DNA of 64,000 nucleotides. Origin: an uncultured Lachnospiraceae bacterium. GTDB lineage: Bacteria > Bacillota > Clostridia > Lachnospirales > Lachnospiraceae. Below are positions 19,018 through 23,438 of this stretch, piece after piece (the stretch's first letter is position 1; every line of letters begins with the position of its first letter). The notes beneath the pieces were generated by a model that made no database searches, was not told the origin of the DNA, and worked only from the letters and a program-made list of their open reading frames with translations. The position numbers were made by a program, and so were the translations under genes. Location of the stretch: positions 17,788 through 81,787 of the forward strand of contig CANQGL010000001.1 in NCBI GenBank assembly GCA_947623185.1, given 5' to 3'.

Positions 19018-20253
19018 ATGTGCGCCAGAATAAAATATCGACGAGATTTTGTCGAGCAGTATTTGATGGTATTCTTTTTTGTGGCTTCGGTTGTATTGGA
19101 AGGAAGTGTGTGGGCATCAAGACCAGAGGGTATTGTTAACTCGGCAGCATTGATATTAAAAACTATGCGGTACTTTTCATATTTTTTGGCTGTACTTATT
19201 ATCATAAAAAAACCGTTCTATTATAAGAAACTATTATCTGCCATAATATTTGCAATAACAATAATTACAATAAGCATGCTGGCCAGTACTTCAAAAACTA
19301 TGCTTTTATATATGCTTATATTTGTTGCAGCACTTAATATGGAATCTGAAAGACTGATTAAATGTACTTTTATTGCACAGGCAAGTCTACTATTGCTTAT
19401 TGTAGGCTGTTCAATGTTGGGGATTGTACAGGATTATATATGGATAGAAAGTGGTAGCAGATTGAGACATTTTTTGGGCTTTAGCTGGACAACAATAGGC
19501 CCAGTACTTTATTTCTATCTTCTATTACAGTATATCTTTTTGCGGAAAGGCAAAATAAATATTATTGAATATGCTATCTTTATGATGATTGATATATTTT
19601 TTTTTAAAATGACAAATACTAGAACGTGTTTTTATGTATCCATTCTGTTTTTGACTTTCTTTCTTGTTTATTCTTTTACGAAGTCCAAAGGACGCTTGGT
19701 AAAAAAAATAAAATATTTATGCATTATTACACCATTTATATCTGCAGGAATTTCTTTATGGTCAGCCATGTCATATGATGCAAATAATTATCTGTGGAGA
19801 TATTGGGACATTTTTTTTAATGGCCGCTTAAGTCTGGGACGTAAAGGAATGGTAGATTATGGGATTACATTATTTGGACAGCCGGTAAAATGGGTAGGGA
19901 ATGGACTTCAGGTTTTATTAAATGGGTATTCAGCCGAATATAATTATGTTGATAGTGCTTATTTACAAATTTTATATCAATATGGTTGCCTTCTGCTAAT
20001 TTTAATCTTAATTGTGTTTTCAGCCTTGGTTTACATATCAATAAAAAGAGAAAAATTTTATTTAACATGGATTCTTTTAATTATCTCGGTGTATTGTATT
20101 ACTGAGCCAAGACTAGTTAATCTTACATATAATCCGTTTATCCTTTTATGTGCCACAGAATGGACTGAGTATTATAAACATTGTGATATAGAACAAAGAA
20201 TCATGGGGAGCATTGAACGCGATATACAATGTGATGGGAAACTTTATGAATAG
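19018..20253 (+). CDS. second O-antigen polymerase-like (Wzy) membrane protein
   Basis: Hydrophobic multi-pass protein; similar late pattern to the first Wzy-like ORF (GRLSLGRKGMVDYGITLFGQPVKWVGNG...YNYVDSAYLQILYQYG). Confidence 0.65.
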   Translation: MCARIKYRRDFVEQYLMVFFFVASVVLEGSVWASRPEGIVNSAALILKTMRYFSYFLAVLIIIKKPFYYKKLLSAIIFAITIITISMLASTSKTMLLYMLIFVAALNMESERLIKCTFIAQASLLLLIVGCSMLGIVQDYIWIESGSRLRHFLGFSWTTIGPVLYFYLLLQYIFLRKGKINIIEYAIFMMIDIFFFKMTNTRTCFYVSILFLTFFLVYSFTKSKGRLVKKIKYLCIITPFISAGISLWSAMSYDANNYLWRYWDIFFNGRLSLGRKGMVDYGITLFGQPVKWVGNGLQVLLNGYSAEYNYVDSAYLQILYQYGCLLLILILIVFSALVYISIKREKFYLTWILLIISVYCITEPRLVNLTYNPFILLCATEWTEYYKHCDIEQRIMGSIERDIQCDGKLYE

Positions 20254-20369
20254 ACTAACTATTAAAAGCCAATCGTTTTTTGAGAAATATTTTAAATTTC
20301 TTAAAAGTAGTCTTTTGGAGCAGTTGTACCTTGAAAATCGCATGACAAACAGAGCATCGTGACCGGTGC

Positions 20370-21575
20370 TCACAAGGAGTGTTTTATATCAGAAAATGTC
20401 ACGCGAGCTTTTATGTAAGGTTTCCCGGATTTTTCCATTGCGTAAATAAGTCGCACCAGCTTTTTGGTGGCGTGAGTGATGGAAACATTATAATGCTTGC
20501 CCTCCGATCGCTTCTTTGCGAGATAGGCTTCAAAAGTCGGATCCCATAGATAGACATATTTAGCCGCATTGATCAGAGCATAGCGCAGATATCTGGAGCC
20601 GCGTTTCTCCATGCGGGAGTATGAGGATTCCAACTGGCCGGATTGGTAGGTGGAAGGCGATATTCCTGCATAAGCGAGGAGCTTGTCCGGTGAGTCAAAG
20701 CGGGAGAAGTCGCCAACCTCTGCCAGGATCATGGCACCCATACGATAACCGATGCCTGGGATCGTCAGGATTGGGGAAGATATCCCGTCCATGATCTTTA
20801 GGATTTCTGATTCGATTTCATCGATTTCAGAGTCCAGTTCACCGAGCAGCTTGATTGTATGCTTTAATTCAAGCGATTTGGCGGGTATGCTGGAACCGAT
20901 GGAGGTTCTCGCGGCATCCCGGATTTCAATGGCCTTATCCCGGCCATAGCGTCCTTTGGAAGCTGTTTCCAGCAGATTCACCAGATTTGTTAGGTGACAG
21001 GCAGCAATCTGGTGTGCGTCCGGTAATTCGCCAAGGAGCGCATAAACAGAGGCTATGTGGAGAGAGGGGACCAGCTTTTCCAGTTCAGGGAACAGGATGG
21101 TAACGAGCCTGGAGACAGACTGTTTCAGGCGTGCTCGTTGCTTTATCTTATCAAAACGGTAACGGGTGAGTGACTTTAGCCCCTCATTGTGGTATGATGT
21201 GTCTGAGTAGGACTGCATGTCCACGTCAGACATTAACATCATAGCAATGGTTCGAGCATCGACCTTATCCGTTTTCGTCTTTCTAAGACTGAGACTTTTT
21301 CTGAAAAGATTTGTGTGAAGCGGGTTGATGACGAAGGTGGTCAGACCTTTGTCAAGGAGATAACCGAGCAGGTTGTAGCTGTAATGTCCAGTGGCTTCCA
21401 GTCCTACTTTTATATTGGACATATCAGAAGAGAGGGAATGGATCTTTTGAAACAGATCTTCAAATCCCTGCCGGTTGTTCTGGAAAGAGAAAGCCTTAAA
21501 GAGGACTTCACCGTCTGAGTTTGTGATGAAGCAGTCAGGCTTATCCTTAGCGACATCAATTCCAACATAAATCAT
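20370..21575 (-). CDS. IS110 family transposase
   Basis: MIYVGIDVAKDKPDCFITN...GLEATGHYSYNLLGYL...KTKTDKVDARTIA...ILTIPGIGYRMGAMILAEVGDFSRFDSPDKLLAYAGISPSTYQSG...RGSRYLRYALINAA. Confidence 0.95.
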   Translation of the reverse strand: MIYVGIDVAKDKPDCFITNSDGEVLFKAFSFQNNRQGFEDLFQKIHSLSSDMSNIKVGLEATGHYSYNLLGYLLDKGLTTFVINPLHTNLFRKSLSLRKTKTDKVDARTIAMMLMSDVDMQSYSDTSYHNEGLKSLTRYRFDKIKQRARLKQSVSRLVTILFPELEKLVPSLHIASVYALLGELPDAHQIAACHLTNLVNLLETASKGRYGRDKAIEIRDAARTSIGSSIPAKSLELKHTIKLLGELDSEIDEIESEILKIMDGISSPILTIPGIGYRMGAMILAEVGDFSRFDSPDKLLAYAGISPSTYQSGQLESSYSRMEKRGSRYLRYALINAAKYVYLWDPTFEAYLAKKRSEGKHYNVSITHATKKLVRLIYAMEKSGKPYIKARVTFSDIKHSL

Positions 21576-21600
21576 AAGAGTACTCCTCTGTAATAGATTT

Positions 21601-21758
21601 GATACTGTTTAGGGCCACAGAGCTCTTTGCGGTTGTAACCTCGTTCTAAATAAACCGTCATGCGGTATCTAACTGATCAACGAATGTACAAAGAGACTGT
21701 GGCTGTAGCCTATTCGAAACCATCGAGTGGTAGGAGGCAGTAACCAGTTCACAGTATC
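21601..21758 (-). ncRNA. candidate IS110 bridge RNA
   Basis: On minus strand: outer 8-bp closing IR GATACTGT (21758-21751)/ACAGTATC (21608-21601); inner 13-bp stem CCACAG-t-CTCTTTG / CAAAGAG-ct-CTGTGG; two stem-bulge-hairpin loops (ACCA-CTCGA-TGGT within GCCT..AGGC; ACCG-CATGA-CGGT within TCGTT..AACGA); located immediately upstream of transposase ATG as in IS110 group. Confidence 0.65.
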
Positions 21759-21827
21759 TTAAATAGAATAGCCCAACCTGTAGAAAAGGTAAAGAAAGGC
21801 TATGACTATATAATACAAGGAGACACT

Positions 21828-23438
21828 ATGCAAAATCAGATATCAAGAAAAGCAAAAACGACTATTGTTTTTCTATATAGCGCATTCGTAGCTTTTTCAT
21901 GTATAAACGACTTTTTCTTCTTTGATTTTTCCCATACAGAAAGAACATCATATTATGTTGCTTCAGGGAATCCATATGCAGTTCCATTTTATCTTTTAAT
22001 AAAGGCAGTGTTTTGCATTTTGGTATTTTTTTCTTTTAGATATATCGAAAGAATTAGGAATAAAAAGGCAGATAAAGGGAAAGCTCTTTTTATACTTGCA
22101 ACACTGATCGGGTATATATTGGTTTTTTTACATATTTCGCCAGGAATATGGTGGTGTAATGGAGCTGATGAATTTACAACATTAAGCTTTGCAAAACACT
22201 TGACAATACAATACCACCAAGGCGTTATGGCAAGCGTTGCATATATCTTGGCATTAATGTGTTGGCCTTCCCCAGAAATGATTGTATTATTTCAAATGCT
22301 GATTGGGGCTGTTATTTTAGGATCAATAGCTTATGACTTATATAAAGAGAAACCACAAAGTGAATTTGCGTTTATAGCATTGATTTTTTCACCAGCAGCA
22401 TTATATTTTTCTGGCTATCCCATGAGAGCATATCTTTTTTCTGTATTTTTTTTGGCGTTTATTCATTACTTTTTAAAATTAGACTCAGAATCTGCCACAT
22501 GGAGTGAAGTTTGCAAAACAACATTGCTATTATGCATTGTTATTAATTATCGCATTGAAGTTGTTCCCTTGCTGGTAATTTATCCTTTCTTATTAAGTTT
22601 AAAGAAATGTAAGCTTAATTGGATAATTAAAGCGATAAGCTTATTGTTAAGCTCTTTAATATTAATATCCACGGTTAACAAGTTGGGATATCAGGCAAAC
22701 AGTAAAGCGCATAACACTATTATGGTTATTGGTCCTTTAAGCGAGTTTTTATCTGATGAGACACGTTCAAAAGAACAGTACGAAGAAGATATTCTAGATA
22801 TTGATAAAGTGTTGGATGTTAATTTCTTGAAAGAGAATCATAGCTATACGCTTGCTCAAGGAGAACGTCCTGATTCAGAATATACAGATGAAGAATATGG
22901 AGATTACTTAAAAGCCGTAATAAATATTTTGACGCGAAATCCAGACATTTATATAAAATGTAAAGTAAAGGGCGCTATGGATTCGTTAGGTTTATCGAGC
23001 TATTCTTGGCTGGGCTTTGCATTTCCTGAAAATGTAATGCCGACAGAAGTTGCAGATAATTTTGATAATATAGATATTGAGAACCATAATATTTTCACGC
23101 GTATATTGAGCGGGCAATATAAAGTAGGGGCCATAAAAATGTATTATATTTGGTATTCATTTTGGATTCCATGTCTACTTATGCTTTGCATTGTAATTTG
23201 GGGAGGGAAAAGAAAGAATTCATTGCGGATTGCAAGTGGTATTATGCTAGTTCACTTGGTACTAACTATTTTTTTTGCACCGTCACGTTATCAAATGTAT
23301 TATTTCGCTGAATACTTTGTTGGTTGGTATCTTGTTATTAGAGTATTAGATATCAATGCTGTCGGTGCGGCTAAGAATTTATACTTAAGAGGAAAGCATT
23401 TTTTAAGAAAATATAAAGCCCTTGGTACTAGTGATTGA
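21828..23438 (+). CDS. multi-pass membrane protein, probable GT-C-type glycosyltransferase
   Basis: ~11 predicted hydrophobic segments; flanked by GT2 and GtrA-like genes. Confidence 0.5.
   Translation: MQNQISRKAKTTIVFLYSAFVAFSCINDFFFFDFSHTERTSYYVASGNPYAVPFYLLIKAVFCILVFFSFRYIERIRNKKADKGKALFILATLIGYILVFLHISPGIWWCNGADEFTTLSFAKHLTIQYHQGVMASVAYILALMCWPSPEMIVLFQMLIGAVILGSIAYDLYKEKPQSEFAFIALIFSPAALYFSGYPMRAYLFSVFFLAFIHYFLKLDSESATWSEVCKTTLLLCIVINYRIEVVPLLVIYPFLLSLKKCKLNWIIKAISLLLSSLILISTVNKLGYQANSKAHNTIMVIGPLSEFLSDETRSKEQYEEDILDIDKVLDVNFLKENHSYTLAQGERPDSEYTDEEYGDYLKAVINILTRNPDIYIKCKVKGAMDSLGLSSYSWLGFAFPENVMPTEVADNFDNIDIENHNIFTRILSGQYKVGAIKMYYIWYSFWIPCLLMLCIVIWGGKRKNSLRIASGIMLVHLVLTIFFAPSRYQMYYFAEYFVGWYLVIRVLDINAVGAAKNLYLRGKHFLRKYKALGTSD

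What the first reader, a model, noticed from the sequence alone, without database searches (positions are those of the whole stretch)
21601..21758. IS110 bridge-RNA candidate with two stem-bulge-hairpin loops
SEEN: directly upstream of an intact IS110 transposase (minus strand) the noncoding segment has an 8-bp closing inverted repeat (GATACTGT/ACAGTATC, 158-nt span) and a 13-bp inner stem (CCACAG-CTCTTTG / CAAAGAG-CTGTGG). It also has two separate loops with internal bulges: GCCT[CCT]ACCA-CTCGA-TGGT[TTCGAAT]AGGC and TCGTT[GATCAGTTAGAT]ACCG-CATGA-CGGT[TTATTTAG]AACGA. KNOWN: IS110 elements (e.g. IS621) encode a bridge RNA in the end adjacent to the transposase start, with target- and donor-binding loops in bulged stems. 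INFERENCE: the bulges are the guide segments; this element could be a programmable recombinase.
Basis: partly seen in the sequence, partly recalled or inferred. Interest (0 to 1): 0.7.

Follow-up and report, generated by a model that had tools for sequence, protein, structure and literature searches.

The report
IS110 bridge RNA targeting ribosome-binding sites
This is a jumping gene whose own guide RNA steers it into the ribosome-binding site just ahead of other genes; the guide RNA itself is a known kind, but landing at ribosome-binding sites, and carrying a replacement ribosome-binding site in its tip, appears new.

Summary
Window 20252-21820 (1569 bp, minus strand) is a complete IS110-group insertion sequence with intact DEDD + Ser recombinase residues and a bridge RNA at 21601-21758. 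The structure covaries in 74 relatives (12 pairs with double changes against 3.3 in shuffles). Guide-target and guide-donor pairing also holds across relatives. Left target guide against left flank gives z = 12.8, right target guide against right flank z = 15.9. The left donor guide equals the right-end hexamer in 76/76 elements. The window's own guide matches its insertion site at 9/12 positions; none of 69 other guides does.

An ATG-started ORF begins 5-15 nt outside the left end in 46/70 sites, against 2/70 at the right end. Seven empty sites in one genus read AAAAGGAG(G)...ATG. The left-end tip (CGAGG-AG) strengthens the predicted anti-Shine-Dalgarno pairing in 48/51 sites. Guide sequence alone does not explain this placement, so selection or another determinant must contribute. 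No experiment was possible, and no empty site was found for the window's own copy.

The parts
20252..21820 (-). complete IS110-group element, 1569 bp (right end at 20252, left end at 21820)
   Evidence: flank divergence of relatives at both ends; coordinates
20370..21575 (-). IS110 recombinase gene, 401 aa; catalytic D7, E60, D103, D106, S312
   Evidence: Pfam PF01548 and PF02371; alignment to IS621, residues located; IS621 catalytic residues from PMC11208158
21576..21820 (-). left end (LE), 245 nt non-coding, carries the bridge RNA
20252..20369 (-). right end (RE), 118 nt non-coding, ends TTGGCTTTTAATAGTTAGTCT
21601..21758 (-). bridge RNA core (structured segment)
21735..21741 (-). left target guide ACTGCCT (includes core CT); matches 5 of 7 bases of left flank AGTGTCT
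21710..21716 (-). right target guide CGAATAG; pairs with right flank (CT)ATTC, 4 of 5 flank bases
21669..21674 (-). left donor guide AGTTAG; identical to the RE terminal hexamer
21639..21644 (-). right donor guide ACGAGG; pairs with LE tip CCTTGT (one G-T wobble in this copy)
20255..20260 (-). left donor half-site AGTTAG in RE
21815..21820 (-). right donor half-site CCTTGT, the LE tip; on the + strand ACAAGG, part of the substitute Shine-Dalgarno AAGGAG
21821..21827 (-). left target half-site AGTGTCT, adjoining the start codon of the + strand gene at 21828
20247..20251 (-). right target half-site ATTCA (end of the upstream + strand ORF; its TAG stop is regenerated)
21765..21770 (-). -10-like box TATTCT 6 nt before the bridge RNA start
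   Evidence: TANNNT at this place in 69 of 70 distinct upstream sequences
21828..23438 (+). gene (536 aa) whose ribosome-binding site the element displaces and replaces

Best explanation
It is an IS110-group insertion sequence. Its left end encodes a bridge RNA that brings the circular element and the target DNA together for recombination by the element's own DEDD/serine recombinase. The first loop of the RNA reads the target (7 + 5 nt) and the second reads the element's joined ends (6 + 6 nt). In this clade the target loop mostly spells an AGAAAG-G(A)-like sequence. Surviving insertions sit mostly just 5' of the Shine-Dalgarno core of a gene, with the left end facing that gene. The gene keeps its own AGG(A) and gains the LE tip (A)CGAGG/ACAAGG directly ahead of it, so a strong ribosome-binding site is rebuilt. 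Shown here by sequence: element ends, RNA structure, guide-target and guide-donor covariation, position relative to start codons. Inferred: RNA expression, recombination activity, and that the rebuilt ribosome-binding site keeps the gene translated.
For: Intact recombinase related to IS621 and ISCro4. RNA covariation. Target guides: 85 left and 76 right sites, z 12.8 and 15.9, p <= 5e-5; the window's guide is the best of 70 for its own site. Donor guides: left donor guide equals the RE hexamer in 76/76 distinct left ends across three variants AGTTAG/AGTTAA/AGTTTG; the right donor guide follows LE changes CCTCG/CCTTG/TCTCG/CACTCG. ATG + ORF 5-15 nt outside LE in 46/70 against 2/70 outside RE, 5.8% at random positions; 37/68 against 1/68 and 1.2% with the stricter first-ATG rule. 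Seven empty sites, all directly upstream of the homologous start codon at AAAAGGAG(G). Predicted anti-Shine-Dalgarno energy median -3.8 before, -8.4 after insertion, stronger in 48/51, shuffled tip -4.0. Copies at 37-44% identity on Enterococcus, Lactococcus and Leuconostoc plasmids mostly lie next to annotated CDS starts in the same orientation.
Against: At equal motif score, random genomic positions lie at ribosome-binding sites only 2-12% of the time, so the guide alone does not explain the placement. About a third to half of insertions have no clear ATG at 5-15 nt. The window's own target (GAATAG-ACACTATG) is a weak Shine-Dalgarno, and no empty site for it was found in 60 other genomes. 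Donor-guide variants represent few independent events.
Confidence: 0.9

Rival explanations
1. The bridge RNA is real, but the ribosome-binding-site placement is only survivorship: the element inserts at many guide-like sites and only insertions that spare coding sequence and rebuild a Shine-Dalgarno are kept.
For: Motif or guide match alone predicts 2-12% of positions at ribosome-binding sites against 54% observed; the rebuilt Shine-Dalgarno would make such insertions nearly harmless.
Against: Identical, hence recent, copies within one genome already show it: G185 4/4, G819 4/4, G322 3/4 (but G144 1/4, G586 1/4 by the ATG rule). Target consensus itself is Shine-Dalgarno-like.
Confidence: 0.45
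2. The structured segment acts mainly as a 5' untranslated leader or attenuator regulating the recombinase gene rather than as a guide.
For: It lies directly upstream of the gene; the IS110-family element ISPpu9 has regulatory small RNAs and leader structure (PMC8450116, abstract listed).
Against: Loop bases covary with external target and donor DNA, which a leader would not require.
Confidence: 0.04
3. The stems are chance inverted repeats.
For: Folding with flanks is not unusual (z -1.2).
Against: Covariation in 74 relatives.
Confidence: 0.01

Closest known systems
IS621 bridge RNA system (IS110 group; PMC11208160, PMC11208158)
   Same: Bridge RNA in the long left end upstream of the recombinase; target loop then donor loop; guides pair with bottom and top strands; DEDD + Ser active site; short AATA/TATT sub-terminal repeat around the donor (ATA/TAT in IS621 relatives); the top-strand cut described for IS621, just after the core, explains why the left core follows the target and the right one the donor.
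   Different: IS621's CT core is highly conserved at both ends; here RE ends CT in all parsed elements, but the target core varies (53 of 86 CT; also TT, AT, CA, CC, TA, TC, GT) and the left target guide equals the target core in 14 of the 33 non-CT cases. LE is longer (245 against 191 bp). Targets are ribosome-binding sites; the abstract of PMC8450116 describes ISPpu9 in repetitive extragenic palindromes, and reference 11 of PMC11208160 gives those palindromes as IS targets.
ISCro4 recombinase (PDB 9t56)
   Same: Solved IS110-family recombinase, E 5.5e-23 to the window protein.
   Different: Only sequence similarity over part of the protein was tested; its target was not examined here.
ISEc21 / seekRNA systems (PMC11187229)
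   Same: RNA from the non-coding region guides insertion; each element has its own target.
   Different: That paper reports a 74-nt seekRNA for ISEc21; the structured RNA here is about 158 nt. A word search for Shine-Dalgarno plus IS110 found no report of such targeting.

Membership tests
IS110 group of IS110-family elements | DEDD (RuvC-like) domain plus Tnp domain with catalytic serine | tested here: met
   PF01548 and PF02371; D7, E60, D103, D106, S312
IS110 group of IS110-family elements | Long non-coding left end upstream of the gene, shorter right end | tested here: met
   LE 245, RE 118 nt
IS110 group of IS110-family elements | Short (2-3 bp or so) sub-terminal inverted repeats around the donor, not 7-17 bp as in IS1111 | tested here: met
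   AATA/TATT in 81 of 93
Bridge RNA | Structured RNA with two internal loops, conserved by compensatory change | tested here: met
Bridge RNA | First loop complementary to target, both strands | tested here: met
Bridge RNA | Second loop complementary to donor (RE-LE) | tested here: met
Bridge RNA | Shared CT core in target and donor | tested here: inconclusive
   donor CT in all parsed elements; target CT in 53 of 86, otherwise variable, partly following the guide; the window copy has CT in both
Bridge RNA | Transcribed, binds the recombinase and directs recombination | not testable with these tools
   only a -10-like box at a fixed distance in 69 of 70 sequences

The most novel reading that the evidence does not exclude
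A clade of RNA-guided IS110 elements, spread over Clostridia and Lactobacillales, uses Shine-Dalgarno sites as general safe landing places. Its bridge RNA guides lean towards the Shine-Dalgarno sequence and its left-end tip, which is also the right donor half-site, rebuilds the ribosome-binding site of the displaced gene.
Probability: 0.6. Interest if true: 0.7.

Novelty: new variant of a known kind. Interest (0 to 1): 0.58.

Why it matters
It adds a natural series of about 70 distinct bridge-RNA guide pairs with their targets, and a target class present ahead of most genes in these bacteria. If the left end really restores translation, this is a mobile element that avoids killing what it interrupts, and a ready-made way to insert cargo between a gene and its upstream region without losing its ribosome-binding site. 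The variable target core also bears on how strict the core requirement is.

Tried and rejected
Rfam at gathering thresholds: no family hit in the window. Single-sequence folding with flanks: uninformative. Alternative pairing of 5' CUGUGG with CCACAG: fits as well (98.6% paired), so the junction topology is left open. Empty site for the window: none in 60 other genomes; none for G185 or G322 because no congeners are held. Hypothesis that guide sequence alone creates the ribosome-binding-site preference: not supported. My first control for start codons counted internal methionines; the stricter count is. A junction promoter across RE-LE (TTGACT in RE, TATTAT in LE) has a 20-nt spacer and was not pursued. 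Viral contigs gave one relative. A search of Enterococcus plasmids with the L184 left end gave 25 near-identical records, not followed site by site.

Full report
The observation. The ORF directly downstream on that strand (20370-21575, 401 aa) carries both IS110-family Pfam domains. It aligns with the solved IS621 and ISCro4 recombinases, and the residues corresponding to IS621 D11, E60, D102, D105 and S241 are D7, E60, D103, D106 and S312.

Element ends. I collected 54 relatives from the genome collection, more from whole genomes at family, order and class level, and a few from phage, plasmid and viral collections. Their flanks diverge sharply at the same two places. The left end starts CCTYGTATTATA and the right end stops TTGACTTTTAATAGTTARTCT. 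This puts the window's element at 20252-21820, 1569 bp. It is the only copy in the 2.75 Mb assembly.

Structure. The 158-nt segment has a mean column identity of 80% over 74 distinct relatives, with the main variation in two short stretches of the first loop. Counting a named structure on this alignment gives 98.2% paired cells and 12 pairs with changes on both sides in 77 cells (shuffles: 3.3 and 13.4; slid versions far lower). The covarying helices are the outer stem, the base of the first loop (UUGG/CCAA, changing to UUGU/ACAA, UCAG/CUGA and UUAG/CUAA), the first hairpin (ACCA/UGGU to ACCG/CGGU) and the CUCUUUG/CAAAGAG stem. Whether CCACAG pairs with the 5' or the 3' CUGUGG cannot be decided. 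A TANNNT box, like a -10 box, lies 6-8 nt before the first base of the structure in 69 of 70 distinct upstream sequences; this is a hint of a start site, not proof.

Target guides. Reading the flanks outward from the fixed ends, the seven bases before the left end match the 5' side of the first loop at 49-92% per position (31-76% in shuffled pairings). The first five bases after the right end match the reverse complement of the 3' side at 99, 89, 86, 76 and 57% (71, 59, 53, 33 and 28% shuffled), z = 12.8 and 15.9. Excluding pairs where both sides are of the common TTC type leaves the signal intact. Clear natural re-targetings include (CT)CCCGA in Faecalibacterium phage Roos, GTCGGG in L153, ACTCG in L075 and ATAAC in L114. 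The window's guide scores 9 of 12 on its own site; the best of 69 other guides scores 7.

Donor guides. The hexamer of the second loop equals the terminal RE hexamer in all 76 distinct left ends that could be parsed, in three variants (AGTTAG 68, AGTTAA 6, AGTTTG 2). The other side of the loop pairs with the LE tip and follows most of its changes (CCTCG/CGAGG, CCTTG/CAAGG, TCTCG/CGAGAA, CACTCG/CGAGTT). The window's LE tip has CCTTG against CGAGG, one wobble.

Core. The RE end is TCT in 92 and ACT in 1 of the elements, while the two bases left of LE vary and follow the left target guide in 14 of 33 non-CT cases. This fits the cut described for IS621, just after the core on the top strand (PMC11208158): the left core then comes from the target and the right one from the donor.

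Where the element lands. An ATG opening an ORF of at least 50 codons begins 5-15 nt outside the left end in 46 of 70 sites with both flanks, against 2 of 70 outside the right end, and 5.8% of random positions. Requiring the first ATG of the ORF and 60 codons gives 37/68, 1/68 and 1.2%. The target consensus in gene sense is AGAAAGG(A). For one insertion (L145, genome G586) seven species of the same genus keep the empty site. Each alignment runs straight through the junction, and the site is AAAAGGAG(G) followed by the start codon of the same gene. The element therefore enters just 5' of the AGG core of a Shine-Dalgarno without visible loss of bases. In the window it lies 7 nt from the ATG of the gene at 21828, between two ORFs of what looks like a polysaccharide locus, and regenerates the TAG stop of the upstream ORF.

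What the left end adds. Read outward, the LE tip is TATAATACGAGG (TATAATACAAGG here), followed by the target's AG(G). Predicted pairing with the 16S anti-Shine-Dalgarno goes from a median of -3.8 to -8.4 kcal/mol, stronger in 48 of 51 sites; shuffled tips give -4.0. On Enterococcus, Lactococcus and Leuconostoc plasmids, copies of only 37-44% identity mostly also face an annotated CDS start, several with an AAGG-containing tip.

Limits. The guides and the target motif by themselves would place only 2-12% of insertions at ribosome-binding sites. Either selection removes other insertions, or something besides the guide contributes; these data do not separate the two. No experiment was possible. 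The window's own empty site was not found.

Comparison and novelty. The RNA, the recombinase and the pairing scheme are those of IS110-group bridge RNAs (PMC11208160). Targeting of ribosome-binding sites, their rebuilding by the element end, and the freely varying target core were not found in the papers searched. That library lacks most subscription journals and all preprints, and supplementary tables could not be read.

Noticed in passing
L161-L163 (three copies in genome G800): This element's guides and flanks differ from the rest: all three copies sit in the same repeated sequence TTTGCATCACACCCA (core CA), so it seems re-targeted to a genomic repeat instead of ribosome-binding sites.
   Followed up: partly
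L142 (Faecalibacterium phage Roos, PP479939.1, 22432-23607): A phage carries an intact copy of this IS110 clade, annotated as a hypothetical protein; its right target guide matches the flank CCCGA exactly.
   Followed up: partly
L010, L011, L013, L014, L066, L086, L099, L102 (left ends of about 293 nt): These left ends hold two hairpin-plus-promoter-like modules in a row ahead of the bridge RNA, as if the promoter region had been duplicated.
   Followed up: no
window 21758-21820: An inverted repeat (ACCT...AGGT, extended in relatives as CATAGCC...GGCTATG and CATACCC...GGGTATG) overlaps the -10-like box before the bridge RNA; it could be a 5' stem-loop of a longer transcript or a regulator of the promoter.
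   Followed up: no
window 20330-20375: A GAGCACC...GATGCTC-like hairpin after the recombinase gene is conserved in many relatives (gagcacc...gatgctctgtttgtcatgc); role unknown.
   Followed up: no
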